47,532 bases of DNA from Clostridia bacterium. Its GTDB lineage: Bacteria > Bacillota > Clostridia > Christensenellales > Aristaeellaceae. Below are positions 1 to 19,906 of this stretch, one piece after another (within the stretch, counting starts at the first letter, position 1; each line of letters starts with the position of its first letter). The notes beneath the pieces are model-generated. The model made no database searches and had not been told where the DNA came from. It worked only from the letters and a program-made list of their open reading frames with translations. Position numbers and translations under genes: made by a program. The stretch is from the NCBI GenBank assembly GCA_017430225.1, contig JAFRNK010000049.1, forward strand, positions 1 through 47,532, written 5' to 3'.

Positions 1-107
1 GTCTCGAAGCGATAGATTTTTGAAAAGTTTCGTCAAAGTTTCGCCGAAATATAAAAATATCACGCTATTGCGTGATATTTGAGGTGCCGGTGGCGGGACT
101 CGAACCC
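1..107. repeat. Left copy of 107-bp att direct repeat (attP-like)
   Basis: Identical to 39,791-39,897. It contains the last 23 bases of the integrase gene including its stop, a pair of 10-base repeats (26-35, 37-46), the tRNA-type terminator hairpin (55-80) and the 3' part of tRNA-Leu (from 81). Identity stops at 107, where phage DNA begins. A true attL would carry host DNA to the left of the tRNA-derived core. Here the integrase end is found instead, which is the arrangement of attP or of a tandem prophage junction. Confidence 0.9.
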
Positions 108-290: not shown

Positions 291-298
291 TCCTGCCG

Positions 299-3200
299 TC
301 AGAATCCTAACTTCCACAGCAGTTTGTTCAGCTCGCTGTCCTTCCTGGACAGGTCTCCGTTCTCGACGCCATCTGCCAGGATCTCATACAGTTTCTGCAA
401 CACCGCCGCCTTCGCGGGATCGGTTTCCAGTTCCGGCATATAGGCCAGCGCCGCCGTCAGCCTTTCCGCGGGAGTATCCGTCTTGTATCCCTCCGGCACG
501 TAGCCAGGCTGCTTCTCCTGATATAGCTGTGCCTGCCGGTCTTTGGCGATATACTCCATCGTGTTATACACATCATAGATGGCGTTCTGATCAGAAGCCA
601 TTGCCCAAAGTTTCCGGTACACGTCTCCGCCCAGCGTCTGCTCAAACTCCCGGCGTGCCTGCGTCGGTTCGCCATGCATCGAGGTGCCGTACGGATTTAT
701 TCCTTCGCCGCGCTTCACGACGTCCGGAGCCTGTCCGATAGGTTCTGTCCTCTGACGCCGGCCTCGGTACCATCTCGGCGCGTTGCTCGTATTGGTATCC
801 GCCAGTTCCGGAGTCATCGTGCCGCCGCGGGTGACCGTTGGTGCCGCCCAGGGATTATTCTTGTCGCTGTCCGTGTGCAAGTGCCAAAGGTACGAACGCT
901 CTTCATCCGTGAGGCCGTCCATCATCCGGATTGCTTTCTCATAATCGGCGTTGGTGTGGCTGCCGCCGTCTGTATCGGCAACGGACAGGGCCAGCTTGTA
1001 AAGCAGGTATTCCGTCGCATCGATTCCGACAGCTTCGCCGGCATCAATCTTTGCCTGCGTGTCGTTGTCATGACCAGCGGCCAAAGACAGCAGCGCATTC
1101 ATGACAGTCTCGTGCTGCTTGTTGCTGGCCTGCTGCCACACGGGCGACGCCTGGAGACCGTCCGCCGTTATCTGGTAGAACGATTCCCGCTTTGCCTGTT
1201 CCTTCTGCCACTCTTTGACCTTTGCGTCGATATTCTCTTCCGCAGTTTTGCTGGACGTGGCAAACGGATCGCCGGCCATTTCAATCATATCCTGGCGCAT
1301 CTCGGTAAACATTTCAGGATCTTTCGTCCATGCCTTCTTTAGCAGAGCATAGTAATCGCTCTTGTATTTGGCCGGGTCCGTAGTCACGCGCATCGCATTA
1401 TACTCTGCACGCAGGCCGGGGCCAAACAGCGGGTCACCATTTGCTTTCCCAATCGCACGGCCAACAGCAATCGCCAGCACCTGGAAATCCTTGACCACGT
1501 TCGGCATCGGGAGTCCGGTAGTCATCTGCACGACGGTGCCTAAATGGTCGACGATATTACGTGCTGACGTTTCCGCGCTCTTATCTCCCTGGAATGCTCC
1601 GATAGTATCAGTCATCAGAGACACGGTGCTTTCCAGCAGATCATTCACCGCTTCAATGGAGTTCTCTGATAAGCCGTAAAACTTCTGGTCGAAGATAGCG
1701 TCACCGCCAAGTTGCTTGGCTATCTTGTCTACTGTGCTTTCAAGGAGTTCCAGGATCGTTCCGCCAAACGGGACCATACCACCAAGCGACGTGAGCATAT
1801 TCAGTCCAAGAGCCTTGCCGGCGCTCCAGAACGTCAGCTCGTCCTCGTCGTCCTTGTACTTCTTCAGTTTCCCGCGGAGCATATCCCAGACAAACTGCAT
1901 CAGGCTGAAGATGAACGCGGACAGCGCCTGTGACGTCACAGCCCTGGCTACTGTCTTCCTGGCATTCTTCAGGGCGTCAAGGTTCTCCTGGGTCCCATTA
2001 GCTTTATACTGTCGTGCTTTGGCATTCATATTGCCAAATGCGTCGATCAGGATGTTTGCATTCTGGAACGGCTGCGTTTTGAACATATTCATCACACGCA
2101 TAAACTCGCTGTCTGACCGCAGGACGCCGGGTCTCTGCATGGTCGCATAGTTCGGCTGCGTTTCCTCGATGATCCTGTTATAAATCGGCGCAACAGCTTC
2201 GTAAAACTCGTGCGTGCCGGGTGTCAGGTCTTTTCTGGTATCCTTGATGTAATACTCTGCTGCCGTCCACAATTTGGTAGTGGTTGCAATATCAACCGCC
2301 TGGATCCAGTTCAGAACCTTATGGCTGGTCAGCTTCGCCACCAGTCCGCCGCGCTTGCCAATGTCGCCAAGTTCGGCGGTGGAGTACCCCTTGCTCCGGT
2401 ACCACAGCAGCGGCGTGTACTGTGCGATCAGATCAAGGTCCACCTTCTTGTTGGAATCCTTTAGTGCCTTCACAAGCGGGCCATACCCGACAACGGCTGC
2501 TGCCGTAGCATAGGATGCTGCCTGTTTGACGGCGACGCCACCGTTCAACGTCAGCACGCCACCGGCATAGTTGCTTCGGAGTGCCGTGGCAAGCCCACCG
2601 CCACCGCCTGCGCCTGTCTGCACATCCCGCATCATCTTATCCAGATAATCCTCGTGCGCGGATAACAGATTGTTTCGCACACTGGTGCCTTCGCCCTGCC
2701 GGAACTTGACGTTCAGCAGTTTGTTCAGGTTCCGTATCGGCATCGCCAAACCGTAGTATTTACTGTGGCCGTCGATGCTTCTGGTCAGCACGTCGTTCAT
2801 GTCGTACAGCATGATCGTTTCCGTCGCGCCTTTGATACGCTCTTTCAGGAATCCGGCAGCGGCGACTGTGCCATCCGGTTTCACTTCGCCAAAATCCGAT
2901 TTCAGGAAGTCTCTGCTCACGTCGATGGGGAAGTATTTCAGCACACGTGCAATCTCATACCCCACATGCTCAACGCTGACGCTATTGATTGCCTCCTTAC
3001 TCATGGTGTTAAAGTAGTCGAACGCGGCGTCTGCAAAGGCCCGTTCTTCCGGACTCATCTGCTGCGTGATCTCGTGGATCATATACCGGGAGAAAACAGC
3101 ATGCACGCCTTCGCCGTCCTTGTACGCATCAGCCAGCTTGCCTTTTTTGTACATTTCCTTATTCGGGATCAGTACGCCGCCGTTCTCAATGTGCTTTAAG

Positions 3201-6200
3201 TTGTCTTCGCACTTAGCGTGCAGGTACAAGCTCATCCGCATGGCGGGCGTGATCTCGATTTCCTGCATCTGGCCATCCACCAGGGCTTTCACCTTAACCC
3301 ACTTGGCGTCCTTGCCGGCAATACTGCGGATAAACTTCTTGTCGTTCACCCACTTCTTGAAGATTTCTTCGCACCGCCGCTGGTAGTCGTCCATTCTGCG
3401 CTGGCCTTCGGAAAGTTCCTGCGTCAACCGGTACAGCGGGTCATTGTCATTGTAGCCAACGATTCTATGGACCGCTCGCTCCGGGGTCAGCAGGCCGTCG
3501 CCGCCTTTATTTTGTTTGCCGTGTCGCTTGCCGAAAAGCAAGGTTTTGATGAACTCGGTTTCCGTCCTTGCCTTCCCGCCTCTGTAGTCATCGACAAATT
3601 CCAGCGCGGACGCATAAGCATCTCTCCGTTCCTGACTATCGATAAATTGATTCTCCGTGCGGGTCATCGTTTCGATGTTAAGCAAGATTGTGGTCAGGTC
3701 CGCGACTTCCTGCTGCGTCATATCGCTGATGCGCTTCTTGTGCAGGCGTTCGATCAATCCCTCGATATAGCTGTCAGGCACAAAGTCATCACCCAGTTCA
3801 GCCTTCTGTCTTGCTTCCCATTCTTTGTACCAGTCACGCAGCGCTTCCAGGTTCTTGATGGTCTTGCCGGTGATTCCCTTCGACACAAGGTCAAGGTCGC
3901 CAATGTACTGATTCAGCAGCGCTCTCGTGGCCGGCCCCAGTTTCTTGTTGTTCAGCCTCCGGGCGATGTTCAGTAGGCGGGTCCTCGCCTCACTGTCAAT
4001 CCGCTTCGCCCGCTTGTCTTCCGCCACCTGACGGTAGTGCTGCTTCAGGGCCTCCACCTGCTGGTCGCGTTTCTGCCGGACCAGTTTCAGAGCAGCCTTC
4101 GCCTTCTCGCGCTCGGCCTTTAGCCGTGCTTCCATCTTGTCCGCGTAGGTCGGATCGGTCTGCCGGATCTCTTCGCCCACCACGCGGCCCAGGATGTCGT
4201 TGGCCGTCCATTCCACCGCGTCCGCCATCTCGTAGTTGTTCATGCGCTCGTAGATCGGGCGGAAGGATTCCAGGATCTCCAGCACCCGCTTGAGCTGGTC
4301 GGCCGGATGATTGATGTCCGGGAACAGGCCCTCGCCAAAGATTCCCTGCAGTTCCTTGTACGCCTGGTCGATGCCGGTCGCGCTTGTATCGGACGTTGTC
4401 AGCGTCACGGTACCCAGAAGACTCTTCCGGAACGCCTGGTAGTCTTCCGCCAGGTCGTGCTGCATATTGCCGGGGACGTACAGTTTCGTCGTCCGCAGGT
4501 AGTCACGAAGCTTTTCGTACGACGCCGGGTCGCCTTCCTCGCGCAGGATCTCCGCATTGTCCAGGATAATGTGCGCGATCTCGTAGGCTTTCGTCCGGGC
4601 CTCGCCGTAGAACTCGTCGTCGAACTCGCGCTCGTTCAGGCAGAACTCTGCCAGGTCCTTCATCTTCGCGCCGACCACGTCCGCGTCCACTTTCGTGCCA
4701 TACTCTGATGCGATGACCCGCGCCAGTGTCTTCGCGTCGTCCAGGCGCACCCGCCTGCCGTCCGTCACTTTGGTCTGGCCCTTCCAGTAGTCGCGTTGCT
4801 CGGTCCTGGTCTTCAGTTTGGAGCGGAGCTCGGTGAGATCCTTGCGTAGCTGGCGATTTGCTTCGTATAGTTCACCGGTACTGAGCTCGCGGGAAGTCTT
4901 TAATTCTGCAGTTCTGGATGCTCCTTCAGAATCTTCTCGATTCCCTTCTGCATTTCCTCTTTGCTCGTTGCCCCGTCTTCTGTCTCCATATAATCCCTGA
5001 TCAGCCAATCGTTCTCGAATTGTTTGTTCCATTCGGGAGTTCCATGTTTCGGTCGGTTCTTTTCCAAATTCGACATCATTGTTCCTCCATTCTGCGTAAT
5101 CGAAATAGTCCTTGTTTTCAGCATAATCTCTGAACGTCTTATCTGCTTTATTTCCTATCGTAGTTAAATAATCAAGGCTTAAAAAGCGACCTTCTTCTGC
5201 GAAGCGGGACGCTGCCCTCATTATAGAAGAATCCTCGGACACTTCGTTATAATACAGGTTTACCGTGTATCCATATTCTTTGAGGGTCTCAACCACGTCA
5301 CTGATAACACTCTTGCCACCGACACGCGGAATGACAACATTTTCACCTCTCGCAATCGCCATTTGCAATGCTTTATCAGCAATCTTCGCGCTTTCCTTTT
5401 GAACATATCCGGCCCCATAGCCATCATCAAAACCATCAAGCCACGGTTTGACTACGTCGCTATCAATAATCCGTGCCTGATGCTCATGGGAAAGAGGATT
5501 GGCAAAGACTCGTGACTTTCCTCCAGCCGGCCGACCGATTACAATATAAGCCTCCCGGTTTCTGGCAACGGGCCCGGTAAACTGTTCCTTCCCATTCACC
5601 TTTTTAATTTTATTCTTTCCCTCATCCCACGCAGCGCTGCCGTGTTCATCGTCCAGTAGTTTTTCTACAAGGCGATCTCTTCTGGCGTCGACCTCAGCAT
5701 TCGTTCCTGGCAGATTCTTTGACCAGCTGTCTCCTTTTGAACCTCTGGCTCGTTCCTCCGCCTTCACAATTTCGGGGATCGTCTTCAGGATTTCATACGG
5801 AATCTTTGCCCCGGCCACGGAAGCGGCAGATATGTAGGCAAGGTCACGGTGAGCCCAGTTCTTAAACCGTGCGCTCTTACTATACCACTCTTTCGCTTCC
5901 GGCATCAAGTATGTCCTATAATCTTTCTTTGCCTTAATCTCTTCCTGCGTCAGATCCGAGTCGGGCATAAGATAGCGATCATATTTTGATTCCACGTCAG
6001 AATAAGGAGATTGTTCCTCGTTGGCATGAACGGCATCTTTTAGAGAGACGTTCAGCCCCATATACATGCCTTCACGCTGCCGGGTTCCTGAGCGCATATC
6101 CAGCAGCATCTCCGGTCCGTCAAGGATAACGTCCGTGAGGATGTCGTTCACGTATGCGTTCCCCATAGCCTTGTATACGTCATCGTTTTGTGTGTACACA

Positions 6201-9200
6201 AATGCCATACCGGCACCGATGTTCACGCGCTGGTTCCGGATATAATTGACAAGCTGTTTATTGTTCAGGAGTGCCTTATCAGAGACTTCCTGGATCTGGC
6301 GCACCTGACCTTTCTGGCTCGCGTATACGATCGCTGAATAGCCCTTGCCGCTAACGATATCACGGCCTACCGCAGCAACAGTTTCAGGAGAGTAAACATC
6401 TTTCCCGAGGTTTCTGTTCTCCTGGCTCGGCATGAGAAGAAAATCCAGCTGCATCTGCCCGGGGATCTCCTTTTCCTCCTTCGAGACCGTCCTGTTTTTC
6501 GTGTCTGCCTGCAGCTCGGTAAACACGCGGTGATCGATGATAATATGTCCCAGAAGTTTCGCCCCTGTATTTTTCTGCACCGTCTCCGCAATCGTACCTG
6601 TTGCATTGATATCATCCGTGCTGGGATTTACATGCCCGGACGGATGGTTGTGCATGAGATAAACACCATCAGCGCCGACACGCTTAATCTTCTTGATCAG
6701 GTCGTTCGACTGAAAGTCCTCTCTGTACGTCAGCGAAAGCCCAGGCAGTCGGCAGGTCACTGAATCCGTACCAACGATCTTCCCTTTTTTGACATAGAAA
6801 TACCGCACCGTCTCGAATCTCGGATTCCGGAAGATCTGGCACAGCTGCGCTAAATCTTCCGCGTTCCGGATCTTTGTTCCGTTGAGGTTGACTCGTCCGG
6901 TTTTAATGAACTGAGCTGATATTCCGTTTCCAAGAGTTCGGATATCGGTCTTACCGTCCCGTCCTTGTCTACCCAGATCCACTTCTCCTCCGGCAGCGGA
7001 TATTCTCTCGAGTCCGTCGAGGAGGTCTTCAATTCCTTGTTCTGCAATGGTCAGGTTCTCCTTGTCTGTTTTGTATTCTTCGTGCGTCTCCTGAAGATAG
7101 ACGCCAAGATCGCGGCTGTTTTTCTTCTTGACACCAGGGTTCTCTTCTGCTACAGTGTCAACAGAAGAAACGGATGCGTTCCCTCCGCTAAGACGAGTAC
7201 GTATAGGCTTAGCGGCAGTAGCCCCGGAAGAGTCGCGAACCTCTCCGGATGCAGACGCATCCGTTTGTTCGTTTTCCCATCCCGATAGCACCCAACTATT
7301 GGCGCCGCTATTTTGCGAGAGTACCACCGTATATCCATTATCGTATAAACGGATTCTCTTGTTGCCCATTCCGGAAAAATCATTTTTTTGAACGTCACCA
7401 TTTGTCGCATTTGCAATGACATTTACGATTTCGTATGCCGTCCTAACGCCATCTCCACCCTCAGAGTTTCTCTTTGAGATTATGTGCGAAAAACCATACC
7501 CGTGCTTAAACGAAGCACCTTTTCCTGGATTGCCCCATACAAAATCAATATTTCCCAGTTCTTTTCGGGACATGGCGTTTTTCACTGACAAACTCTCCGG
7601 CGAATCGCTGGTCTTCGCTTTTTCGATCAATTCATTAAGCGCAGATTTACCGCTCTGGATATTTTTTTCTGTTTCTTCTGCCGTGTCCTTTGAAAGAGTG
7701 AATGAAGCCGGGGCCTTCAATTCAGCACTATATTTCGGGGCAGAACTGTTATTGTCTTTCCCGCCTTCTGTCCTCGCACTCACCGTCGCTTTCTTCGCCG
7801 CCTTCAGCACCGGCGCTGCCTTTGCCGCATCTTCCATGTGGCCGTGCATGATAAACTCGTTCATGTTGCCGGCAGCGTCGCAGATCATCTCCTCAAAGAC
7901 GTCCTCATTGCTTAATTCGGTTCCTTTGTACAGGGCATAGTAATCACGCAGGACATCCTCCAACTTGTCTACGCTTCCCAAGTCTTCGATCATCCGGTCG
8001 CGGTACTTTGAGAGGACTTCTTCCCTGCTGCTATCATTGTATTCACGAGAGAGGGTCTCGTGCATCAGTTCGTGCCGCGCAATCTGATCCGCGGTGAAAA
8101 TCTGGTGGTCCGCACGCACGTAGATGGTCTTCGTCTCCGGGTCAAAGTACCCACGGGACTGGACGATCACCTTCTTCCCGTTCTTCGATATGGATTCGAT
8201 TTCTAAGGACCCGCCGACAAAAGGCACATACATATACCCGCGGGCCTCAACCTCCTCGCGTGCTTGTTCTATGTATTTGTCCGCGTAAACCCCCTTGCTG
8301 TTCTTCTGAAGGATACGGATGTTCTTCCTCGTCGTTCCGTTCCGAATCCCAAGATCAGACGCACTTACAGATTCCGAACGAACGCCAGAAACTCTTCGAC
8401 CCCCTCGGAATCCCGCGATTTCTTCCCGGAATTCAGCGCTTCCTGTTCCTCTTTCCACTCGGCCAGCTTCGACTCCGGTACCCGCGCCGTCATTCCCTTG
8501 TAGCCCGTCGCGTACACGTACTTCTCCTGTTTCTGCTTCTGTGCCATTTTCAGCCTCCTCATTTATGTTTGTATTGTATTTAGCGCGGCCTGCCGTATAC
8601 GCGACCCGCGCCTGTGCTAAGCTCATCGTAGGATTTTCGCCGGCCGCCTCGTAATCAAAGTCACGGCCTTCTTCGCCCTGATTGATAAACCGTGCAGCCT
8701 CGCCGGCATATTCTACTTCATTCTGTCCCGGCTGGTAAGCCTGCACGATTTCAGCAGCGGAATCGCTGTCTACATTCAGCCGTTCCAGCGCATCGGCCAC
8801 TTTGGAATACTTCCTGAACGCCAGGTCCTCAAACCGTGCGGCCCGTGCTTCCTCGCCGGTCTGCATGCGGATGCTCTCCGCCGGACTCATCGGTTGCGCC
8901 ATTTCCGTCATCGCACGCGCAGTGTCTTCGGCGCTTCTGGTATAGTTAAGACCGCGGCCAAATTCGGGACGGGCTTCAGATTCGCCCGTAGGCGCAGTTT
9001 CTTCCGTCTGTGACACATTCTCCGCCTGCGCGCCCTGGGACGCCTCACGCTGGCTTGCAAGTGCCTTCAGCGCTTCGATAGCGTCAGAGGAAGCGGTTTC
9101 TTCGTGGATCTCGACGCCGGACCGCTCGGCCAGATAATCCGTCACGGCCTCGTTCCGCACGATCCGCGCCACGTCACGCTCGGTCAGGTCCTTGCCTTTT

Positions 9201-11386
9201 TCCAGGCGCTTCACGGCACGCTCGATATCGTCGTAGTCGTCGCCCTGGGTCTGTTCCTCAAACGCCTGCGCCAGTCTCCCCAGGTCGACGTTGCTCATCT
9301 TGTCTGCCTGGTCCGCAAAACTGATGGAGTCATCGTCCAGGTAAATATCGCGCTTGTCCACGATCTTGTCGAAGGTGTCCTGCAGGTCGCCCTTGTACTG
9401 TGACGCAGCAGCGGCGATGCTGTCCAGATAACTCGTGTCGCCGGCCTTCAGTTCGCTTCTGATGTTGCGCCCAATCTGGGCGTCCCGCATACGGCCGACC
9501 ACGCCGACTTCGCCAAAGAGGCCGGACATAGCACCAACGACGAAAGACGACAGCGAGTCCTTCATCGTATCAGCAAACGATCCGCGGTCTTCCCCGATGA
9601 TGCCGGCCGAGTCAAGCATCCAGTTCGCCGCGTCAGCAAGGACTTCTTCAATGCCTTCAAATGCCCCGCCGATGACCTTCTCGCCAAGTTTGCCGAGGAT
9701 TTTTGCGCCGGTATCCGACTTTGCCATGCGCTGCAGTGCGCCGGTCAGTTTTTTGGTCGTCACTTCATCCAGTGCGCCCCCGTCGGTGACTTTGCTCATC
9801 GCACCGACAGATCCCCAAAGCATTTCCGTCGCCATTTCGATTGCGCCGCCCTGGCCCGCGTACCTGTTCAGGTTTTTGGCCATGTCCCTGCCGATCTCTT
9901 CACCGCGGCTCATTACGGTATTTGCGCCTTCCGCCCATGCGCCACCGGCTGCACGCATACCGAATGGCAACATTGATACAGCCCCCAGGTTGTTGATGCC
10001 AAGTGCCATAGTTAAGGCAGCGTCCAGGCCGGACTGAATCCTGCTGGACAATGCTTCTACGGCAAAATCACCAAGACTGCCAAGCTCGGCCGTTGCGTTC
10101 TTCGCGCGCTGAAGATCCTTGTTTGCGCTGTTCTGGAGATTGAGCATAGTCTCAACGTCGAACAGATCCTCGCCGGTGCCGGACTGCGTGAGGGAGAACA
10201 ACTGCTTGTACGTTTCGTCTGCGTCACGGTCCACCTTGCTCAAGTCGAAGCCGGCGAAAATATCCTGCCCTGCGCCCTGGGCGTGGGCTACGTGCTGGTC
10301 GATATACTCCATGACGCGGTGAGCATAGTCATCGCCGCCGAGGGCCGTGGCGGTCCTCACGATGCCTTCACGGAGATTCTGCGTGCCGGGGTCCTGACGC
10401 TGCGGATCATTGTCTACCGCGCCCAGATAAAACCGCGTTGCGGTCCGCAGTGCTTCGTCCGCCTCGCTCTCCACGTTGTTCAGGATGTTGCCGGACTGTG
10501 CGTTCTGATACTGGCCAAGCCAGGACGCCTCGTACTGCTTCAGCGCACCGGTCAGCGTGCCGCCCAGGGCCGTCGCCGCCTTATCCCAGAAAGTCATGCG
10601 GTCCAGGTCCATTCCGGCCAGTTTCGCCTTATACACGCGGTCCTTTTCCGCGTCCTCTAACTGAAGTTTCCGCAGGTTTTCGATACCGCCGGCGGCGTCC
10701 ACGGCCTTGCTGGCGTCCTGCCACTCCTGCATGGCGTCAAGATAACCGTCAGGCGTAGCCGCTCGGTCCTCGTGCTTCATCTGGTCTTCCGCACGCTCGT
10801 AGGCCGTCACATAGCGGTCGATCAGGGAATCGCGCTCGTCGCGCCATTTGCTGTAGGCGTCGTCTTCTTTCTTCCGCTGTTCTTCGCTCACCTGACCTTT
10901 CTGCCGCTCTTCGCTCCATTTCATCAGGTCAGCGGCACTCGACCACTCTCCAATCTCCGTCGTCGGAGCTGTCGGGGCAGAACGCTGCGGTCTGGTGGCG
11001 GCATATTCATCAGCAAGCCTCTGCCGTCTGCTTGCCTCGGCAAAGTCAAAACCGCCGGTACTGGGGGCGCCGGTAATTCGTCTCCTGCTGTCCTGTAAGG
11101 CACTCCCGACAAAGTCATGTGCCGCAGCCATTCTTGCGGTATCCTGTTCGCGCAATCTTGCGATGGCTTCGTCCAGCGCTCGGTCATACGCACGCCGTTC
11201 CGCCTGGGCCTCCTGCTTGCGCGCAAGCGCGCCGCGATCTGCTCCCATAGCAGACGTGGCACGGACATAGTCGTGATACGCCTGTTCCCGTCTCCGCTGC
11301 TCTTCCTCTTCCTCTCTCTTCCTTTTCTCGGCCTCTTCACGCGGGTCGTAAGATCCGCCCAACTGACCAAACTTTCGTAATGCCAT
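299..11386 (-). CDS. Giant polyvalent virion protein (3,695 aa): zincin, PBECR-type nuclease, JAB and zeta-like kinase domains
   Basis: This is the last gene of the late operon and the largest in the phage. The N-terminus is charged and coiled-coil-like (EEAEKRKREEEEE). Hydrophobic segments lie near residues 459-482 and 609-629. A zincin-like motif HELMH is at residues 1105-1109. A domain at about 1235-1375 (with FVWGNPGKG and GYGFSHII) resembles the phage Barnase-EndoU-ColicinE5/D-RelE-like (PBECR) nucleases. A JAB/RadC-type domain lies at about 1480-1620 (HNHPSG then PSTDD). A P-loop kinase resembling zeta toxin lies at about 1940-2110 (GRPAGGKS). The rest is long, mostly helical, with hydrophobic segments near 3148 and 3193-3217. 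The start follows GAGGTGATAA, 3 bases after the stop of the previous gene. By family knowledge, such polyvalent proteins enter the host with phage DNA and counter host functions. That this one is ejected from the particle is inferred from its place behind the tail genes. Confidence 0.85.
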   Translation of the reverse strand: MALRKFGQLGGSYDPREEAEKRKREEEEEQRRREQAYHDYVRATSAMGADRGALARKQEAQAERRAYDRALDEAIARLREQDTARMAAAHDFVGSALQDSRRRITGAPSTGGFDFAEASRRQRLADEYAATRPQRSAPTAPTTEIGEWSSAADLMKWSEERQKGQVSEEQRKKEDDAYSKWRDERDSLIDRYVTAYERAEDQMKHEDRAATPDGYLDAMQEWQDASKAVDAAGGIENLRKLQLEDAEKDRVYKAKLAGMDLDRMTFWDKAATALGGTLTGALKQYEASWLGQYQNAQSGNILNNVESEADEALRTATRFYLGAVDNDPQRQDPGTQNLREGIVRTATALGGDDYAHRVMEYIDQHVAHAQGAGQDIFAGFDLSKVDRDADETYKQLFSLTQSGTGEDLFDVETMLNLQNSANKDLQRAKNATAELGSLGDFAVEALSSRIQSGLDAALTMALGINNLGAVSMLPFGMRAAGGAWAEGANTVMSRGEEIGRDMAKNLNRYAGQGGAIEMATEMLWGSVGAMSKVTDGGALDEVTTKKLTGALQRMAKSDTGAKILGKLGEKVIGGAFEGIEEVLADAANWMLDSAGIIGEDRGSFADTMKDSLSSFVVGAMSGLFGEVGVVGRMRDAQIGRNIRSELKAGDTSYLDSIAAAASQYKGDLQDTFDKIVDKRDIYLDDDSISFADQADKMSNVDLGRLAQAFEEQTQGDDYDDIERAVKRLEKGKDLTERDVARIVRNEAVTDYLAERSGVEIHEETASSDAIEALKALASQREASQGAQAENVSQTEETAPTGESEARPEFGRGLNYTRSAEDTARAMTEMAQPMSPAESIRMQTGEEARAARFEDLAFRKYSKVADALERLNVDSDSAAEIVQAYQPGQNEVEYAGEAARFINQGEEGRDFDYEAAGENPTMSLAQARVAYTAGRAKYNTNINEEAENGTEAETGEVRVRDGLQGNDGAGTGVEAGRVERGTGSAEFREEIAGFRGGRRVSGVRSESVSASDLGIRNGTTRKNIRILQKNSKGVYADKYIEQAREEVEARGYMYVPFVGGSLEIESISKNGKKVIVQSRGYFDPETKTIYVRADHQIFTADQIARHELMHETLSREYNDSSREEVLSKYRDRMIEDLGSVDKLEDVLRDYYALYKGTELSNEDVFEEMICDAAGNMNEFIMHGHMEDAAKAAPVLKAAKKATVSARTEGGKDNNSSAPKYSAELKAPASFTLSKDTAEETEKNIQSGKSALNELIEKAKTSDSPESLSVKNAMSRKELGNIDFVWGNPGKGASFKHGYGFSHIISKRNSEGGDGVRTAYEIVNVIANATNGDVQKNDFSGMGNKRIRLYDNGYTVVLSQNSGANSWVLSGWENEQTDASASGEVRDSSGATAAKPIRTRLSGGNASVSSVDTVAEENPGVKKKNSRDLGVYLQETHEEYKTDKENLTIAEQGIEDLLDGLERISAAGGEVDLGRQGRDGKTDIRTLGNGISAQFIKTGRVNLNGTKIRNAEDLAQLCQIFRNPRFETVRYFYVKKGKIVGTDSVTCRLPGLSLTYREDFQSNDLIKKIKRVGADGVYLMHNHPSGHVNPSTDDINATGTIAETVQKNTGAKLLGHIIIDHRVFTELQADTKNRTVSKEEKEIPGQMQLDFLLMPSQENRNLGKDVYSPETVAAVGRDIVSGKGYSAIVYASQKGQVRQIQEVSDKALLNNKQLVNYIRNQRVNIGAGMAFVYTQNDDVYKAMGNAYVNDILTDVILDGPEMLLDMRSGTRQREGMYMGLNVSLKDAVHANEEQSPYSDVESKYDRYLMPDSDLTQEEIKAKKDYRTYLMPEAKEWYSKSARFKNWAHRDLAYISAASVAGAKIPYEILKTIPEIVKAEERARGSKGDSWSKNLPGTNAEVDARRDRLVEKLLDDEHGSAAWDEGKNKIKKVNGKEQFTGPVARNREAYIVIGRPAGGKSRVFANPLSHEHQARIIDSDVVKPWLDGFDDGYGAGYVQKESAKIADKALQMAIARGENVVIPRVGGKSVISDVVETLKEYGYTVNLYYNEVSEDSSIMRAASRFAEEGRFLSLDYLTTIGNKADKTFRDYAENKDYFDYAEWRNNDVEFGKEPTETWNSRMEQTIRERLADQGLYGDRRRGNEQRGNAEGNREDSEGASRTAELKTSRELSTGELYEANRQLRKDLTELRSKLKTRTEQRDYWKGQTKVTDGRRVRLDDAKTLARVIASEYGTKVDADVVGAKMKDLAEFCLNEREFDDEFYGEARTKAYEIAHIILDNAEILREEGDPASYEKLRDYLRTTKLYVPGNMQHDLAEDYQAFRKSLLGTVTLTTSDTSATGIDQAYKELQGIFGEGLFPDINHPADQLKRVLEILESFRPIYERMNNYEMADAVEWTANDILGRVVGEEIRQTDPTYADKMEARLKAEREKAKAALKLVRQKRDQQVEALKQHYRQVAEDKRAKRIDSEARTRLLNIARRLNNKKLGPATRALLNQYIGDLDLVSKGITGKTIKNLEALRDWYKEWEARQKAELGDDFVPDSYIEGLIERLHKKRISDMTQQEVADLTTILLNIETMTRTENQFIDSQERRDAYASALEFVDDYRGGKARTETEFIKTLLFGKRHGKQNKGGDGLLTPERAVHRIVGYNDNDPLYRLTQELSEGQRRMDDYQRRCEEIFKKWVNDKKFIRSIAGKDAKWVKVKALVDGQMQEIEITPAMRMSLYLHAKCEDNLKHIENGGVLIPNKEMYKKGKLADAYKDGEGVHAVFSRYMIHEITQQMSPEERAFADAAFDYFNTMSKEAINSVSVEHVGYEIARVLKYFPIDVSRDFLKSDFGEVKPDGTVAAAGFLKERIKGATETIMLYDMNDVLTRSIDGHSKYYGLAMPIRNLNKLLNVKFRQGEGTSVRNNLLSAHEDYLDKMMRDVQTGAGGGGGLATALRSNYAGGVLTLNGGVAVKQAASYATAAAVVGYGPLVKALKDSNKKVDLDLIAQYTPLLWYRSKGYSTAELGDIGKRGGLVAKLTSHKVLNWIQAVDIATTTKLWTAAEYYIKDTRKDLTPGTHEFYEAVAPIYNRIIEETQPNYATMQRPGVLRSDSEFMRVMNMFKTQPFQNANILIDAFGNMNAKARQYKANGTQENLDALKNARKTVARAVTSQALSAFIFSLMQFVWDMLRGKLKKYKDDEDELTFWSAGKALGLNMLTSLGGMVPFGGTILELLESTVDKIAKQLGGDAIFDQKFYGLSENSIEAVNDLLESTVSLMTDTIGAFQGDKSAETSARNIVDHLGTVVQMTTGLPMPNVVKDFQVLAIAVGRAIGKANGDPLFGPGLRAEYNAMRVTTDPAKYKSDYYALLKKAWTKDPEMFTEMRQDMIEMAGDPFATSSKTAEENIDAKVKEWQKEQAKRESFYQITADGLQASPVWQQASNKQHETVMNALLSLAAGHDNDTQAKIDAGEAVGIDATEYLLYKLALSVADTDGGSHTNADYEKAIRMMDGLTDEERSYLWHLHTDSDKNNPWAAPTVTRGGTMTPELADTNTSNAPRWYRGRRQRTEPIGQAPDVVKRGEGINPYGTSMHGEPTQARREFEQTLGGDVYRKLWAMASDQNAIYDVYNTMEYIAKDRQAQLYQEKQPGYVPEGYKTDTPAERLTAALAYMPELETDPAKAAVLQKLYEILADGVENGDLSRKDSELNKLLWKLGF
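4900..5079 (-). CDS. Small nested gene at the end of the kinase domain (candidate antitoxin)
   Basis: This 59-residue ORF lies inside the giant gene in another frame of the same strand. It begins MMSNLEKNRPKHGTPEW, is rich in K, E, N and W, and looks like a real soluble protein. A GGAGG box stands 4 bases before the first of two adjacent ATG codons (5079, 5076). In the same stretch the giant frame turns into a low-complexity G/R/N/E linker, as expected when a real gene is read out of frame. It overlaps the end of the zeta-like kinase domain. Toxin-antitoxin genes often overlap in this way, so an antidote role is possible but not shown. I do not recognise the family. Confidence 0.5.
   Translation of the reverse strand: MMSNLEKNRPKHGTPEWNKQFENDWLIRDYMETEDGATSKEEMQKGIEKILKEHPELQN
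8365..8547 (-). CDS. Small nested gene before the zincin domain
   Basis: This 60-residue ORF lies inside the giant gene, in the same alternative frame as the one at 4900-5079. It begins MAQKQKQEKYVYATGYKG and ends EEFLAFVRNL, with a basic N-terminal and an acidic C-terminal half. A strong GAGGAGG box precedes the ATG by 6 bases. Here the giant frame reads as a G/E/R/V-rich linker without evident fold. It lies immediately upstream of the zincin, nuclease, JAB and kinase cassette. The family is not recognised. An independent small protein seems more likely than chance because of the ribosome binding site and composition. Confidence 0.5.
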   Translation of the reverse strand: MAQKQKQEKYVYATGYKGMTARVPESKLAEWKEEQEALNSGKKSRDSEGVEEFLAFVRNL

Positions 11387-11389
11387 TTA

Positions 11390-13057
11390 TCACCTCGCCA
11401 AATAGCCAAGCGCCACGCGTCGCGCGTAATCATCACCGTATCCCTGACCGCGCAGGAACTGATATGCGTCGTCATAACCGCCTATGCCCTGTGCCTGCAT
11501 CACCTGCCACAGGGACGTGTCTATGCTACGTCTACGTTCGCCGGTTCCGCCCATAGTGCCACGGATGCCGTGTACCACACCGCCGCCGGTTTCTTCCGGT
11601 GCGGGCTGCGTCTGTTCCGGCGTGCCGCCGCCACTGCCGCCGAGCTGTGCCAGATACTGCTGGTATCTCTGACGTTCCGCATCCTGCCATTCGCCGTACT
11701 GGCGTGCATATTCCTGCTCGTACTGATCGAGGGCATCCTGATAACCCCTGTACTGCCATTCGCGGTCGGTGTCCCAATCCTGGTCCTGCTGGCGGTACTG
11801 CTGCCACGCAAAGTCGCGGTCGCCTTCCCACTGCTGCTGTTGCTGGAGCCACTGGCGGTAGGCAAAGTCTCTGTCGCCTTCCCACTGGTCCTGCCCCTGC
11901 AGCCACTGGCGGTAGGCGAAATCTCTGTCTTCGCCAAACTGCTGCTGCTGCTGAAGCCACTGCTGGTAAGCGAGCTGACGGTCTTCGCTCCACTGGTCCT
12001 GCCCCTGCAGCCACTGGCGGTAGGCAAAGTCACGGTCCTCACCGTACTGTTGCTGCTGCTGCAGCCACTGACGGTATGCAAAGTCGCGGTCCTCACCATA
12101 CTGCTGCTGACTCTGTAGCCACTGCTGATAGGCAAGCTGACGATCCTGACTCCAGTCTCCGAGCAGATCGCGGAACCGGCCATAATCCTGGCCCTCCAGG
12201 CTTTCCAGCAAGCCAAGCTGTTCCACCATATCCTTGCCCTTGTCCCGGTACATAGAATATGCCAACTGCTGCAGCTCCGGGATCTTGTCGTTCAGTGCCT
12301 GCATATACTGGTTGTATGCGCCCTGCGACGCCGTGCCGGCATAGGAAGATGCCAGGCCGCCGGTGCGCGCGGAGACCTGCGCCAGCGTATCCTGCATGGC
12401 CTGCTGCCCCTGCCGCGTATATGCTTCAGCGTACTGCTGGTACAACGGGTCTGCCTTGTAGTCATAAGAGAAATCACCGCGCCCCAGGATCTGCTCGATC
12501 ATTTCCTGGATGCGTTCGTCGTACCGGGACTGGTACTCCGGTCGTTCTGCTTCGTATGTGAAATCTTCCGGCCGTTGTCCCTCAAAAGTAAAGTCCTCCG
12601 GTCGCTGCCCCTCAAACGTGAAATCTTCGGGTCGTTCCACGCCGTAGGTGAAATCTTCCGGTCGCTGTCCCTCGTAGGTAAAATCGGTGGGGCGTTCCAC
12701 GCCGTAGATGAAATCTTCCGGTCGCGCCGTCTCCCACGTGAACGTGGGCCGTCCCGTCCCGGTATAGTCAAAACCGGGCCTGCCGCTTCCGGTGTACTGG
12801 AAAGAAGACGGCTGGAACTCCTGGATATACGACGGCGGGCCGCTGGGCGGATCCGTGGCGGGCGGATCCGTGGCGGGCGGCGTAAAACGCTGCTGGGCCT
12901 CCTGCCGCTGCTGTACCATTTCCTGGGTCTGTCCGGTTTCACCAAAGCGGGGATCATACTGTTCGGTCATTGTGTCCGCGCCGGTCCTTCTTCTGCTCCT
13001 TCTGTATCCGCCGGTGCCGGCATCCTGCGTCCTTGTCACCATTCCTGCTCTTGCCAT
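11390..13057 (-). CDS. Repeat-rich helical structural protein, probably internal virion protein (555 aa)
   Basis: The start is preceded by AGGAGGAATAT. After a Gln/Pro-rich N-terminus come about seven 10-residue repeats of the RPEDFTYEGQ type (about residues 110-175). A globular or helical region follows (about 180-310), then about seven 18-residue repeats of the type DRDFAYRQWLQQQQQYGE (about 315-440). Eighteen residues equal five turns of alpha helix, so the second array can form one long regular helix. The C-terminus is Gly-rich. It sits between tail-nozzle-like genes and the giant polyvalent gene, with a 3-base gap to the latter. A role as ejection or inner-core protein is inferred from position; a fibre or scaffold role cannot be excluded. 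Confidence 0.7.
   Translation of the reverse strand: MARAGMVTRTQDAGTGGYRRSRRRTGADTMTEQYDPRFGETGQTQEMVQQRQEAQQRFTPPATDPPATDPPSGPPSYIQEFQPSSFQYTGSGRPGFDYTGTGRPTFTWETARPEDFIYGVERPTDFTYEGQRPEDFTYGVERPEDFTFEGQRPEDFTFEGQRPEDFTYEAERPEYQSRYDERIQEMIEQILGRGDFSYDYKADPLYQQYAEAYTRQGQQAMQDTLAQVSARTGGLASSYAGTASQGAYNQYMQALNDKIPELQQLAYSMYRDKGKDMVEQLGLLESLEGQDYGRFRDLLGDWSQDRQLAYQQWLQSQQQYGEDRDFAYRQWLQQQQQYGEDRDFAYRQWLQGQDQWSEDRQLAYQQWLQQQQQFGEDRDFAYRQWLQGQDQWEGDRDFAYRQWLQQQQQWEGDRDFAWQQYRQQDQDWDTDREWQYRGYQDALDQYEQEYARQYGEWQDAERQRYQQYLAQLGGSGGGTPEQTQPAPEETGGGVVHGIRGTMGGTGERRRSIDTSLWQVMQAQGIGGYDDAYQFLRGQGYGDDYARRVALGYLAR
11740..12130 (-). repeat. 54-bp coding repeats (18-residue units)
   Basis: About seven imperfect copies of a 54-base unit encode Q-W/Y-x-x-DRDFAYRQWLQ-type units. 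Copies differ mainly in paired variants (QQQQ or GQDQ), suggesting growth by duplication of a two-unit block. Confidence 0.8.
12530..12740 (-). repeat. 30-bp coding repeats (10-residue units)
   Basis: About seven copies of a 30-base unit encode RPEDFTYEGQ or RPEDFTYGVE. Two earlier, diverged units (GRPGFDYTGT, GRPTFTWETA) precede them. Confidence 0.8.
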
Positions 13058-13432: not shown

Positions 13433-13630
13433 CTATTCACCGGGCGTTCTGTTCTGGTCAATCGTCGCCTGATTCCCATTCGCTTCCGGTCCCGGCATCC
13501 GTTTTCCGTAGATGCTTAATATGTGATTGAGGGTTTCCCGCAGGTACTCCAGGTACTCAATGGTCTCCCTCATAGTCTCCCGCAGGTCATCCTTGATGAT
13601 CGGCGGTTCTCTCTGAATATATCGTCCCAT
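13433..13630 (-). CDS. Small phage protein, unknown function (65 aa)
   Basis: A 65-residue protein whose ATG overlaps the stop of the upstream nozzle-like gene (TGATG), showing translational coupling. Its middle (ETMRETIEYLEYLRETL) is a short amphipathic helix, likely a small coiled coil, followed by a polar tail. No family recognised. Confidence 0.6.
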   Translation of the reverse strand: MGRYIQREPPIIKDDLRETMRETIEYLEYLRETLNHILSIYGKRMPGPEANGNQATIDQNRTPGE

Positions 13631-15237
13631 CAGTTGATCACACTCCCTGTCACATACTCCCGGCCAATGGCGCGGATAGTCACTTCGCCGGTGCCCTCCA
13701 GGCGCAGCGTGTACTTGTCACAGCGGCCCAGTCTCACCGGCACCATCACCGGCACCAGGTTCGCCGCGGTCTGCTGCCACACGGTCTTCCACGCCCCGTC
13801 GTCCTCTTTGACTTTGACGGTCACGGTGCTGCCGGCCGTCATAGTCATCCTGATCAGGAGGCGCAGGTAGCCCTTGCGGTTAAAGATGTTTTCGTACGTG
13901 GGTACGAACTCGCCAAACCACTGCTGACTTTCCAGGACGCCCTGCTCAACACGGCGGAGCTTCCCAATGCCATCCTGCTGGAACACCATGTGCAGTTGAT
14001 TGTCCTTGTTCGTCATGGCGGTATATGACTCTCCGCCGACGTCCTCAATGGCCCAGAAACCGTGCTTGAGGTCGTACGCGTACAGGTGACTGACGCCGGC
14101 AGGATTGGTCATGCCGATATAGTATTTCAACCCATCCGTACCGCCGACCGCATTGGTATATATGCCATTTCCGAGATTGTACGAAATAGACTGCGGCCTG
14201 CCGCCGGTGTACGCATAGACGCCGTTGATGCCCTTGTAGTAAAGCGTCTGGTCTATGACTGTCAGGCTGCGCTCACTTCCCTTCTGCAGGCCATCGATGT
14301 TGGAGTCATCCATATAGTATTCCGAGGGGAACTTGCCCAGGATCTTGTGCAGGATCTTTTCTTTCCAGGCGCATACAGTGCCGTTGTACTCGCAGATGCC
14401 GGTGAAAGGCCCCTCCGAACCGACCGTCACGGCGTACGGCCCGATGTCTCCGAGCGAGTATCGGAAAAAGTCCGTCGGATCTCCCAGGGCGGACGCGTAA
14501 ATAGTATTCTCTTCGATGTTGCATCCCCAGATTCTATTTCCGGAGGAGCAGATAAAATCAAGATCAGGGAAAGATCCTTTGATATTGAGGGAACCGCTGT
14601 ATGGTGGATCGAATGTCACGGCGGATTTAAGCAAGCCGATGGCGTCGTCCGCCGGCGTCTGGCCCGCGCTAACGCCCTGCACGACGGCTCTCCTGGCAGT
14701 TAATCCTTGTGCCTGAATATCGATCACGTCGCCGGCCTTTACTTTGGACGCGATGCCTTCCGCTTTAAGGGAGAAGGTTTCGGAACTCCCGGAGATAATA
14801 ATGTCCCAGGTTGTGGCGGTCCAGTCCAGTTCGACAAAGGGAACAATGTCCCCGGTGATCATGTCATAGTAGACTTTGTCAGGGAAGATCACCAGTTTGC
14901 TGTTGATGACAGCCATCTGTTTCGTGCCGGAAGTCAATGCGATGTCATATATGTCCACGCCATCCTTTTTGAGAATCGGCTTATAAAGCGGGGCATCATA
15001 GATGTTGTCAATCACGTAGAGGTGGCCATCCCACACGTAAACGTCCTGCACGTCGTGGTAGGTCGTGTACTGCCCGCGCATCGGGCGCTGGGTGATCACG
15101 GGATAATTTGACGTAGAGAGTCCACCCATATCAGCGAACTCTCCCTCCCTTGTATTCTGCGTAAGGTTAAGGCCGAAGAACTGGATCGTGTCCTCTTTCC
15201 TGTGCTGGATCGTGAAAGGAAGTTTCGGAAGTTTCAT
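13630..15237 (-). CDS. Tail nozzle / head-tail stabilisation-like protein (535 aa)
   Basis: This 535-residue protein is beta-rich, with repeated strand-turn units (VYVWDGHLYVID, YYKGINGVYAYTGGRP, GLKYYIGM, MVFQQDGIGKLRR) resembling a beta-propeller. Proteins of this size and pattern in podovirus-type genomes form the tail nozzle or stabilise the head-tail joint (P22 gp10-like in role). Context agrees: it follows the 121-residue connector-like protein, whose stop it overlaps (TGATG), so ATG at 15,237 is the likely start. It lies downstream of the capsid genes with no tail tube or tape measure gene. The assignment rests on context and fold impression only. Confidence 0.6.
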   Translation of the reverse strand: MKLPKLPFTIQHRKEDTIQFFGLNLTQNTREGEFADMGGLSTSNYPVITQRPMRGQYTTYHDVQDVYVWDGHLYVIDNIYDAPLYKPILKKDGVDIYDIALTSGTKQMAVINSKLVIFPDKVYYDMITGDIVPFVELDWTATTWDIIISGSSETFSLKAEGIASKVKAGDVIDIQAQGLTARRAVVQGVSAGQTPADDAIGLLKSAVTFDPPYSGSLNIKGSFPDLDFICSSGNRIWGCNIEENTIYASALGDPTDFFRYSLGDIGPYAVTVGSEGPFTGICEYNGTVCAWKEKILHKILGKFPSEYYMDDSNIDGLQKGSERSLTVIDQTLYYKGINGVYAYTGGRPQSISYNLGNGIYTNAVGGTDGLKYYIGMTNPAGVSHLYAYDLKHGFWAIEDVGGESYTAMTNKDNQLHMVFQQDGIGKLRRVEQGVLESQQWFGEFVPTYENIFNRKGYLRLLIRMTMTAGSTVTVKVKEDDGAWKTVWQQTAANLVPVMVPVRLGRCDKYTLRLEGTGEVTIRAIGREYVTGSVIN

Positions 15238-15602
15238 CACATGACCCTCCAGTTTCCTTTGTCCGCCGGCTTCGTGGTGCGGCGGTACCAGGATGCGGCT
15301 CTCGCCCAGGCTGCATTGAACATTTCCATATCATTCTGGTACAGGTTAGTCTCTTCGTTAGCCATGTCGATCATCGCGCACAGGTACCAGGTGTAGACCT
15401 CGTCGTACGGATGCGGCATAAGCAGTTCCACGTCGGTCAGTTCCGCTTCAGTGCCGTCGTTCGGATTTTCCGGGGCTTCCACTCCGAACATCTCCGCCAC
15501 GTCTCCCTCGACGCCGCGGAACAGGAGCTGTGCCAGCGTAAACTCATCCGCCGCGTGCGGCCGCAGCATCTTTGCGCTCGATAATGCTTCAGACAGTTTC
15601 AT
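15237..15602 (-). CDS. Head-tail connector / adaptor-like protein (121 aa)
   Basis: I chose the internal ATG (MKLSEALSSAKML) because it overlaps the endolysin stop (ATGA) and the longer upstream extension is a shadow. The protein is predicted helical, with LMPHPYDEVYTWYLCAMIDMANEE and an N-D-x-x-x-FNAAWAR segment typical of short adaptor proteins of tailed phages. It sits directly before the nozzle-like gene, as expected for a head-completion protein. Confidence 0.65.
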   Translation of the reverse strand: MKLSEALSSAKMLRPHAADEFTLAQLLFRGVEGDVAEMFGVEAPENPNDGTEAELTDVELLMPHPYDEVYTWYLCAMIDMANEETNLYQNDMEMFNAAWARAASWYRRTTKPADKGNWRVM

Positions 15603-18526: not shown

Positions 18527-18551
18527 GTTTTCCCTCCACTTGCGGCGGGGA

Positions 18552-19576: not shown

Positions 19577-19906
19577 TTATATGGTAGCACAACCCTTATC
19601 CGAATCCGCCCTACATTTGGCACGGTAATCGACAAGGGATACGTGTCCCGGTTCTGCCTCGGCTAACTGCTCAAACGCCAGCGTGACCATCCGCAGGACC
19701 GCATCTGCTCCTGGGATGTTCGGCACGCTGACGCAGGCATATCCGGGATCCAGCACGGCCTCGGTCTGGCCGCCGGCGTCGATGACCCAGTTCGCTGTGG
19801 CCGTGATCATCATGGAGATGGCGGCGCATACCCTGTCATCGTCCGCGTGATCGATGCAGCGGATCTTCGTCGCGCCGTTGTCCTCCGTGATCAGGATGGC
19901 CGTCAT
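19577..19906 (-). CDS. Prp-like (YsxB family) cysteine protease, probable capsid maturation protease
   Basis: A 109-residue protein whose ATG overlaps the portal stop (ATGA). It carries DHADDDRVCAAISMM (His20, Cys27), the paired H-A and V-C-A motif of the ribosomal-processing cysteine proteases, and a C-terminal helix (LRMVTLAFEQLAEAEPGHV) like the family's end. Host Prp removes the N-terminus of ribosomal protein L27 in Firmicutes, and host Prp is known to cut staphylococcal phage capsid and scaffold proteins. A phage-encoded homologue between portal and scaffold fits a prohead protease. The loop between His and Cys is shorter than in the cellular enzymes. Confidence 0.7.
   Translation of the reverse strand: MTAILITEDNGATKIRCIDHADDDRVCAAISMMITATANWVIDAGGQTEAVLDPGYACVSVPNIPGADAVLRMVTLAFEQLAEAEPGHVSLVDYRAKCRADSDKGCATI
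19581..19616 (-). promoter_or_regulatory. Copy 2 of a 36-bp bipartite element (candidate late promoter for capsid genes)
   Basis: On the minus strand: ATGTAGGGCGGATT, 11 unrelated bases, then TGTGCTACCAT. The same two blocks with the same 11-base gap occur at 28,508-28,543. TGCTACCAT resembles an extended -10 (TGnTATAAT), and the conserved upstream block covers the -35 region, as in an activator-dependent promoter. Here the element overlaps the last codons of the Prp-like gene. Confidence 0.5.

What the first reader, a model, noticed from the sequence alone, without database searches (positions are those of the whole stretch)
299..11386. 3,695-residue polyvalent protein joining protease, nuclease, JAB and kinase domains
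One late gene takes 28% of the phage genome and combines HELMH (zincin-like), a PBECR-type nuclease, a JAB/RadC domain (HNHPSG...PSxxD) and a P-loop kinase (GRPAGGKS) within one long helical protein with hydrophobic segments. Its place behind the nozzle gene suggests an ejected protein. This would deliver four effector activities with the DNA. The exact combination is not one I know.
Basis: partly seen in the sequence, partly recalled or inferred. Interest (0 to 1): 0.8.

Follow-up and report, generated by a model that had tools for sequence, protein, structure and literature searches.

The report
Giant modular phage effector protein
A prophage, with an identical stretch in a goat-gut bacterium, spends over a quarter of its genome on one giant protein, probably shipped into the host with the DNA, that strings peptidase, RNase-like, RadC and toxin-kinase modules between conserved ends; across its relatives the swappable modules tend to be bordered by a short repeated signal.

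Summary
Window 299-11386, MINUS strand, is one 3,695-aa ORF, 28% of a 39.8-kb prophage bounded by a 38-bp att repeat in tRNA-Leu. PBECR1, RadC and Zeta_toxin exceed Pfam cut-offs. HELMH belongs to an HExxH...E zincin (third Glu in 41 of 43 giants, itself included). It is a phage "polyvalent protein", a class described in 2017 (PMC5512222); PBECR1 was found in none of 46 relatives' regions scanned, so none shares this cargo.

New here: relatives share a chassis (N-terminus, zincin, ~880-aa C-terminal core with no PDB relative) around a swappable cargo zone. The giant lies directly behind the same gene family in 36 of 42 loci. In the cargo zone a motif, [KR][FY]S[LMAIVT], is enriched (77 seen, 13.2 expected, 51 giants), also in held-out giants (15 vs 4.3), and sits at module breakpoints (67 of 80 vs 33). 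It looks like a module-border or processing signal, perhaps read by the zincin.

Unproven: virion location, cleavage, activity. This protein has one canonical copy; its other proposed borders are not statistically supported.

The parts
299..11386 (-). giant polyvalent protein gene, 3,695 aa, 411 kDa
9212..10138 (-). N-terminal chassis segment (residues 417-725), similar in L032 and L039; contains the two N-terminal hydrophobic stretches (residues 457-478 and 611-634)
   Evidence: blastp; hydropathy
7787..8299 (-). zincin-like metallopeptidase domain (residues about 1030-1200): H1105 E1106 H1109 and E1166
7718..7735 (-). KYSAEL (residue 1218), the one canonical [KR][FY]S[LMAIVT] copy in this protein, 113 residues after HELMH
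7265..7576 (-). PBECR1 RNase-like domain (residues 1271-1374)
   Evidence: Pfam PF18809; phrog_6398
7106..7123 (-). KNSRDL (residue 1422), possible degenerate border; homology of the RadC module to L027 starts here, at the L027 motif KFSMK (L027 residue 1184)
   Evidence: not significant on its own
5978..7123 (-). RadC/JAB module (residues about 1422-1803; the right end is a guess); Pfam RadC at 1562-1620, HNH at 1579-1581
   Evidence: JAB proteins of plasmids
4901..5926 (-). Zeta-kinase module (residues about 1821-2162); Walker A 1951-1958, D1975, D1977, R2061, R2067
   Evidence: Pfam PF06414; module limits from relatives; invariant residues; PDB zeta toxin 1gvn E=1.6e-10
4883..4900 (-). KTSREL (residue 2163), possible degenerate border between the Zeta module and the C-terminal chassis
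   Evidence: not significant on its own
1427..4078 (-). C-terminal conserved core (residues 2437-3320) of unknown function, PHROG 22978/28077
   Evidence: no PDB relative by sequence profile
11390..13057 (-). 555-aa late protein directly upstream; family found directly upstream of the giant in 36 of 42 loci
13630..15240 (-). 536-aa protein, PHROG 511 internal virion protein
17285..18610 (-). major capsid protein
   Evidence: PHROG 1357 E=2.1e-90
19903..21843 (-). portal protein
   Evidence: PHROG 156 E=4e-88
70..107 (.). attL copy of the 38-bp direct repeat
39860..39897 (.). attR copy, 3' end of tRNA-Leu (CAA)

Best explanation
This is a phage polyvalent protein: a modular giant encoded in the late virion operon, most likely packaged in the capsid and ejected with the DNA. 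A conserved chassis (N-terminal part, zincin peptidase, C-terminal core) carries a swappable cargo, here PBECR1 (predicted RNase), RadC/JAB and a Zeta-type kinase. Steps shown: one ORF, the domains, conserved active-site letters of zincin, RadC and Zeta, conserved gene order, cargo differences between relatives, and a short motif at module borders across the family. Steps inferred: packaging and ejection; that the chassis core serves packaging or entry; that the motif is a place where the chain is cut (by its own zincin or another protease) so that the modules act separately in the new host, the Zeta kinase on cell-wall precursor sugars and PBECR1 on RNA.
For: Domains. Position: TerL, tail fibre, portal, MCP, 536-aa, 555-aa, giant on one strand; 555-aa family directly upstream in 36 of 42 loci (13 of the 36 were in the profile's own alignment, 23 were not). 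Chassis and cargo: each of the 20 first IMG/VR relatives aligns to part of the C-terminal chassis, with different cargo (ART 13, PBECR5 8, PBECR3 4, RadC 2, Zeta 0, PBECR1 0 of 20). Motif: enrichment; breakpoints; 93 distinct 12-base codings in 101 copies, both Ser codon families, so kept at protein level; copies within one protein alike also after removing pairs with detected flank homology: 0 of 5000 permutations; flanks richer in disorder-promoting residues, scale values recalled. Precedents: phage DEV's 3,398-aa vRNAP is called an ejection protein, co-transcribed with two others (PMC10925440, preprint, passages); crAss001 virions contain 262.5- and 276.9-kDa proteins by mass spectrometry (PMC10172136, passages); C. 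clostridioforme prophages phi1 and phi4 have an 8-kb 3'-end ORF likened to polyvalent proteins and are spontaneously released, in a culture where 12 of 14 particles looked podovirus-like (PMC11318856, passages).
Against: No virion, cleavage or enzyme data. The motif was narrowed after looking at the first giants; an unbiased tripeptide ranking in the same call did not list it in its top 25; the held-out set is from the same protein family. Two full-length giants without a detectable zincin (L038, L136) and one with a degraded one (L108) still carry 2-3 copies, so the link motif-zincin is not strict. The N-terminal zone of the first 33 giants is also above expectation (16 vs 7.3). 14 of 51 giants have no canonical copy in the cargo zone. 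P0001 has one copy; its K.S[AR][DE]L triple is reached by 164 of 1000 shuffles of the three linkers and 189 of 1000 random triples of places. Three phages with 50-52% identical capsid protein have ordinary-size genes behind the 555-aa homologue instead of a giant (L091-L093), so the giant is dispensable in related phages.
Confidence: 0.7

Rival explanations
1. The border motif is real but is cut by another protease: the phage encodes a Prp-like cysteine protease next to portal and scaffold, and Prp cuts between F and A; [KR][FY]S would be cut after the aromatic residue.
For: Pfam Peptidase_Prp at window 19577-19906, E=3e-6, 27.8 bits (cut-off 27); capsid and scaffold ORFs contain LNLRLFSA and LVLNLFGE stretches, which resemble the Prp site as I recall it; PMC5744158 (passages) says Prp cuts F|A in the 80alpha capsid and scaffold proteins, which share an N-terminal sequence with L27; giants without a zincin keep motifs; Prp-like ORFs found by a pattern in L022, L040, L041, L108, whose giants have 3, 1, 2 and 2 copies.
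Against: The giant motifs lack an LNL stretch before the aromatic residue (column counts); many fetched loci do not reach the portal-capsid region, so no association was tested.
Confidence: 0.2
2. The motif is not a cutting site but a structural linker or a docking signal that simply ends or begins several domain families (for example the tail of ART-PolyVal or the start of PBECR5).
For: 32 of 95 copies are preceded by DI, DV, DL, DT or EV, as after the ART of L027; the PBECR5 match of L028 starts exactly at a copy.
Against: After removing ART-tail-like and PBECR5-start-like copies by pattern the cargo zone still has 41 against 12.5 expected, shuffle maximum 21; copies in one protein resemble each other beyond chance.
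Confidence: 0.35
3. The protein is made late but acts inside the producing cell (or as a lysogen-expressed toxin/defence protein), not as an ejected protein.
For: Zeta-type kinases and BECR-fold RNases are also used in toxin-antitoxin settings (established knowledge; PMC5512222 passages).
Against: Conserved place behind the 555-aa gene; no antitoxin recognised among the neighbouring proteins scanned, which were not all small ORFs; giant virion proteins have precedents.
Confidence: 0.12
4. Chance or degenerate domains: Pfam matches mark inactive remnants.
For: The RadC match covers only 58 of 121 profile positions; the RadC NCBIfam equivalog score 36.4 is far below its cut-off 180.
Against: Catalytic letters are intact: HExxH+E, HxH(x7)SxxD, Walker A, DSD and Arg positions invariant in 16 Zeta sequences.
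Confidence: 0.08

Closest known systems
Polyvalent proteins of phages and conjugative elements (Iyer et al. 2017, PMC5512222; outline and passages read)
   Same: Several unrelated enzymatic domains in one chain; zincin as hub, proposed there to process the chain; PBECR; phage late-gene context; zeta-like kinase and RadC listed as polyvalent domains
   Different: Its passages place the zeta-like kinase in conjugative elements or fused to MuF in phages, and RadC only in conjugative-element proteins (section 33); no border motif is mentioned in the passages I read; this core matched no Pfam family above cut-off
N4-like virion RNA polymerase / DEV gp71 (PMC10925440, passages)
   Same: 3,400-residue class, operon with smaller ejection proteins; zincin fused in N4-like proteins (PMC5512222, passages)
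   Different: No RNA polymerase domain found here
Large 3'-end ORF of C. clostridioforme prophages phi1/phi4 (PMC11318856, passages)
   Same: Clostridial prophage, one 8-kb ORF at the 3' end, almost 20% of genome, likened to polyvalent proteins
   Different: Sequence not compared here; only LPD3 similarity is described in the passages read
Zeta toxin / PezT (PDB 1gvn, 2p5t)
   Same: Walker A, acidic and arginine pattern
   Different: Embedded in a 3,695-aa phage protein; no epsilon-type antitoxin recognised among proteins scanned
MuF polymorphic toxins of phages (recalled)
   Same: Phage structural-module protein with variable toxin parts
   Different: No MuF domain in this protein

Membership tests
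Polyvalent proteins | 2 to 15 domains of disparate activity in one polypeptide | tested here: met
   PBECR1, RadC, Zeta_toxin above Pfam cut-offs plus zincin
Polyvalent proteins | encoded by phage or conjugative element, phage type in late virion context | tested here: met
   att repeat, integrase, TerL, portal, MCP; 36 of 42 loci
Polyvalent proteins | delivered with the DNA into the host | not testable with these tools
   needs virion proteomics
Zincin-like metallopeptidase | HExxH plus third ligand | tested here: met
   HExxH by selection in 43 giants; conserved Glu in 41 of 43; E1166 here
Zincin-like metallopeptidase | zincin fold | tested here: inconclusive
   best PDB profile match IrrE E=0.0069, ArdC 0.49, with non-zincins in between; structure prediction switched off
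Zeta toxin kinase | Walker A, catalytic acid, arginine pair (roles recalled) | tested here: met
   G1951-S1958, D1975/D1977, R2061/R2067 invariant in 16 sequences; 1gvn E=1.6e-10
Zeta toxin kinase | paired epsilon-type antitoxin | tested here: inconclusive
   none recognised among neighbouring proteins scanned; not every small ORF was scanned
RadC/JAB | HxH(x7)SxxD metal motif | tested here: met
   HNHPSGHVNPSTDD, aligned to 2qlc E=0.00031
RadC (full-length protein) | NCBIfam PRK00024 / TIGR00608 cut-off | tested here: not met
   36.4 bits vs 180; 34 vs 133.85: domain only, not a RadC orthologue
PBECR1 | Pfam gathering score | tested here: met
   47.6 vs 27.6 bits
PBECR1 | catalytic His in the first helix and C-terminal Thr/Ser (PMC5512222 passages) | not tested
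   H1301 is present, but no alignment to the catalytic position was made
N4-like virion RNA polymerase | T7-type RNAP domain | tested here: not met
   no Pfam match at E up to 1
LPD38 | Pfam PF18857 in the C-terminal core | tested here: not met
   no match; profile comparison with an LPD38-bearing region, probability 0.5%

The most novel reading that the evidence does not exclude
These giants are self-sorting effector polyproteins: a conserved delivery chassis plus a plug-in zone whose modules are bordered by a short code, [KR][FY]S and its protein-specific variants, which the built-in zincin reads to release each effector after entry; each protein's site drifts together with its own peptidase, so new modules are accepted only with a matching border.
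Probability: 0.3. Interest if true: 0.8.

Novelty: new variant of a known kind. Interest (0 to 1): 0.6.

Why it matters
Why polyvalent proteins carry a zincin has been an open proposal since 2017. A border motif with held-out support turns it into a direct test: look for new N-termini at these sites. It also gives a way to parse unknown modules in giant phage proteins, several of which have no Pfam match in the regions scanned, and suggests that a prophage of a gut-type bacterium carries a Zeta-type cell-wall toxin into the next cell.

Tried and rejected
LPD38 as the C-terminal core: rejected. N4-like RNA polymerase: rejected. Own border variant K.S[AR][DE]L in P0001: exactly three copies, at three borders (0.04 expected by whole-protein shuffle), but a fairer linker test gives 164 of 1000, so kept only as a lead. 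DNA-level recombination site at the borders: rejected, codings are diverse. Nozzle identity of the 536-aa protein and identity of the 555-aa protein by PDB profile: no useful match. One alignment of the whole cargo region for structure prediction failed: zincin rows aligned to the Zeta region, so it was dropped. Association of Prp with the motif could not be tested. A laxer Pfam scan of the first 20 (E up to 10) added SprT-like (a zincin family, recalled) in 2, best E 0.038. Searches that found nothing: phages near mode, first IMG/VR scan with the whole protein, Zeta region of P0001 alone vs PDB, integrase in the L109 genome. The PBECR1 scan gave one partial hit.

Rows dropped before counts: L031 (near-duplicate of L030) and L101 (no core) from then on; of 27 new IMG/VR contigs, two short ones (L130, L149) were not used, leaving 25; L116, L135, L141, L142, L143, L147, L148 (over 80% identical to a kept one); one search dropped of these only L116, L141, L143, L148 (52 giants) and left out giants with a cargo zone of 200 residues or less, alignments under 60 residues or over 70% identity. 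The start of the cargo zone was not the same in all calls: HExxH+120, +100 in 66 and 128, +90 in 111; one search repeats the test with both 100 and 120 and with the broader first pattern, with the same outcome. In the tally I name only the ten core-less ORFs of 2,500 aa or more.

Full report
WHAT IS THERE. The ORF is on the minus strand, 299-11386, 3,695 aa. The window is one whole contig (C39) of an unnamed 2.65-Mb genome in 131 contigs. A 38-bp direct repeat at about 70-107 and 39860-39897, the latter at the 3' end of a tRNA-Leu, with an integrase beside it, bounds a 39.8-kb prophage. The giant is the last of the late genes on one strand: TerL, tail fibre, portal, 346-aa protein, MCP, an endolysin-like protein, 536-aa (PHROG 511, internal virion protein), 555-aa, giant. 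The giant starts 3 bp after the 555-aa gene ends. The phage's tail type was not established.

DOMAINS. PBECR1 1271-1374, RadC 1562-1620 and Zeta_toxin 1943-2092 exceed Pfam gathering scores. RadC aligns to the solved 2qlc over HNHPSG...PSxxD. A Zeta profile of 16 sequences matches the zeta toxin 1gvn at 1.6e-10 and PezT at 2.3e-5, and the Walker A, DSD and two arginine positions are invariant in all 16. The zincin around HELMH has no Pfam match; in 43 giants selected for HExxH, this one included, a downstream Glu is conserved in 41, and its profile's best PDB match is IrrE, E=0.0069.

RELATIVES. In 300 genomes of the host family, 12 (own genome included) matched the C-terminal part; in 297 of the order, 14 (own included). 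IMG/VR gave 20 loci and then 37 and 7 with overlap, of which 25 new contigs gave giants with the core. Each of the first 20 aligns to part of the P0001 C-terminal chassis, starting between residues 2140 and 2633. HExxH before the core is present in 18 of 20 and 22 of 25; three of the five misses (L034, L129, L138) are cut at the 5' end. The cargo differs: of 20, ART 13, PBECR5 8, PBECR3 4, LPD23 2, RadC 2, Zeta 0, PBECR1 0; of 26 cargo regions (two, L159 and L168, chosen because they carry Zeta; some near-duplicates), ART 10, PBECR5 6, MuF_C 4, LPD3 4, Zeta 2, PBECR3 2, RadC 0, PBECR1 0. The 555-aa family lies directly upstream of the giant in 36 of 42 giants with enough flank (9 more lacked flank); 31 of the 36 gaps are 0-23 bp (13 of the 36 sequences were in the profile's alignment). 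In contrast L091-L093, whose capsid protein is 50-52% identical to ours, carry homologues of the 536- and 555-aa genes but ordinary-size genes in the giant's place.

MODULES. The Zeta module (about 1821-2162) is 43-55% identical to stretches of other giants, L159 and L161-L165; no core was seen in the parts of these that are held, all six being cut at the locus end. Core and Zeta also co-occur in L168, and a 1,590-aa ORF in the same host family joins Zeta to LPD38 (L103). L159 has zincin, PBECR3, ART and Zeta, with motif copies just before and just after ART. The RadC module matches L027, L028 and a JAB protein on a conjugative Nitrosomonas plasmid that sits next to a zincin-like protein.

BORDER MOTIF. 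From an idea about linkers I first looked for [KRH][FY]S plus one of several residues and then narrowed it to [KR][FY]S[LMAIVT]; an unbiased tripeptide ranking does not show it in its top 25. In 33 giants the counts in N-terminal zone / cargo zone / core-to-end were 16/58/1 against 7.3/9.0/8.5 by composition shuffles; eight control patterns were near or below expectation. The motif having been chosen on these, I tested 18 further giants, not over 80% identical to the first or each other: 2/17/1 against 3.7/4.3/4.5, highest of 300 shuffles 12 in the cargo zone; of seven controls none was high in the cargo zone, two were about two standard deviations high in the N-terminal zone and one in the core. 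With the zone start used for the first set: 4/15/1 against 3.7/4.3/4.7, highest 11; with the broader first pattern 7/21/5 against 6.0/7.4/7.4, highest 17. Pooled over 51: 16/77/2 against 10.4/13.2/11.8; without ART-tail-like and PBECR5-start-like copies 12/41/2 against 9.8/12.5/11.8; 37 of 51 have at least one in the cargo zone. Of 80 cargo-zone copies, 67 have the end of a pairwise homology within 10 residues, random positions 33.3 (sd 4.0, max 47); 68 of 972 homology starts and 62 of 698 ends are near a copy, against 26.3 and 19.0 for shifted copies, none of 300 reaching either; of three control motifs the closest to significance had 17 of 300. So most homology ends are not at copies, but most copies are at homology ends. 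Examples: L034 1161-1607 and L035 1994-2457 align, beginning at copies and ending just after the next; L037 and L042 diverge at residue 1130, at the copy at 1128; several other pairs have ends away from copies. In 15 of 44 HExxH-bearing giants, P0001 included, a copy lies 90-200 residues after HExxH; 11 of 44 have none after it. Ten ORFs of 2,500 aa or more with Zeta and no core seen (L161-L165, L167, L169, L172, L191, L193) have 2 copies in all. Copies are coded diversely (93 of 101 codings distinct, near-duplicates included). Copies in one protein resemble each other in the five residues from the hydrophobic position on, also after removing pairs with detectable flank homology: mean 2.1 against -0.8, 0 of 5000 permutations. 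Undetected homology between short module edges could contribute to this.

THIS PROTEIN. P0001 has one canonical copy, KYSAEL at 1218, between zincin and PBECR1. Two look-alikes, KNSRDL at 1422 and KTSREL at 2163, lie where homology to L027's RadC module begins and where homology to the Zeta modules of L162 and L167 ends. A fair test on the three linkers does not reach significance (164 of 1000). If all were cut, with a fourth border placed at 1804 by guess, the pieces would be about 134, 22, 43, 41 and 173 kDa.

MECHANISM AND STATUS. The reading that fits best is a packaged, ejected polyvalent protein whose modules are separated during or after delivery. Iyer et al. 2017 already proposed both ejection and zincin processing, contrasting P1 DdrB, cleaved before packaging, with N4 vRNAP (passages). 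Two facts weaken the self-cutting version: zincin-less giants keep the motif (L038, L136; degraded in L108), and the phage has another candidate, a Prp-like protease. In the other direction, the zincin-less L168 has no copy. Nothing here shows that any cut occurs. Five literature searches listed no paper that by title or abstract start reports such a border motif; they cover only the open-access library, and for most hits only the listing was seen.

Noticed in passing
window 19577-19906 (-), 17285-18610 (-), 18552-19592 (-): A Prp-like cysteine protease gene (Pfam E=3e-6; active-site H and C present, by recall of the family) lies between portal and the 346-aa scaffold-type protein, and the capsid and scaffold ORFs contain Prp-site-like stretches after an internal Met: the phage may bring its own Prp instead of using the host's as 80alpha does.
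   Followed up: partly
L109 1-13994 = window 85-14078: A Lachnospiraceae MAG from goat omasum (JAFRRM010000016.1) carries 13,994 bp of this prophage at 100% identity beside other host DNA; 3 kb of that flank has no match in the window's own (82% complete) genome: recent movement between hosts, or a binning problem.
   Followed up: partly
window 11390-13057 (-): The 555-aa neighbour is built partly of short repeats (RPEDFTYE-type and DRDFAYRQWLQ-type).
   Followed up: no
L091, L092, L093: Phages with 50-52% identical capsid protein carry ordinary-size genes in the giant's slot, and their genomes are not among those that matched the chassis.
   Followed up: partly
G000 contig C81 5285-6466: The same genome holds a second, 40% identical capsid gene, so probably another related prophage.
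   Followed up: no
window 33851-34390 (-), 27475-28005 (-): HNH endonuclease genes; the first has a NUMOD4 motif as in homing endonucleases.
   Followed up: no
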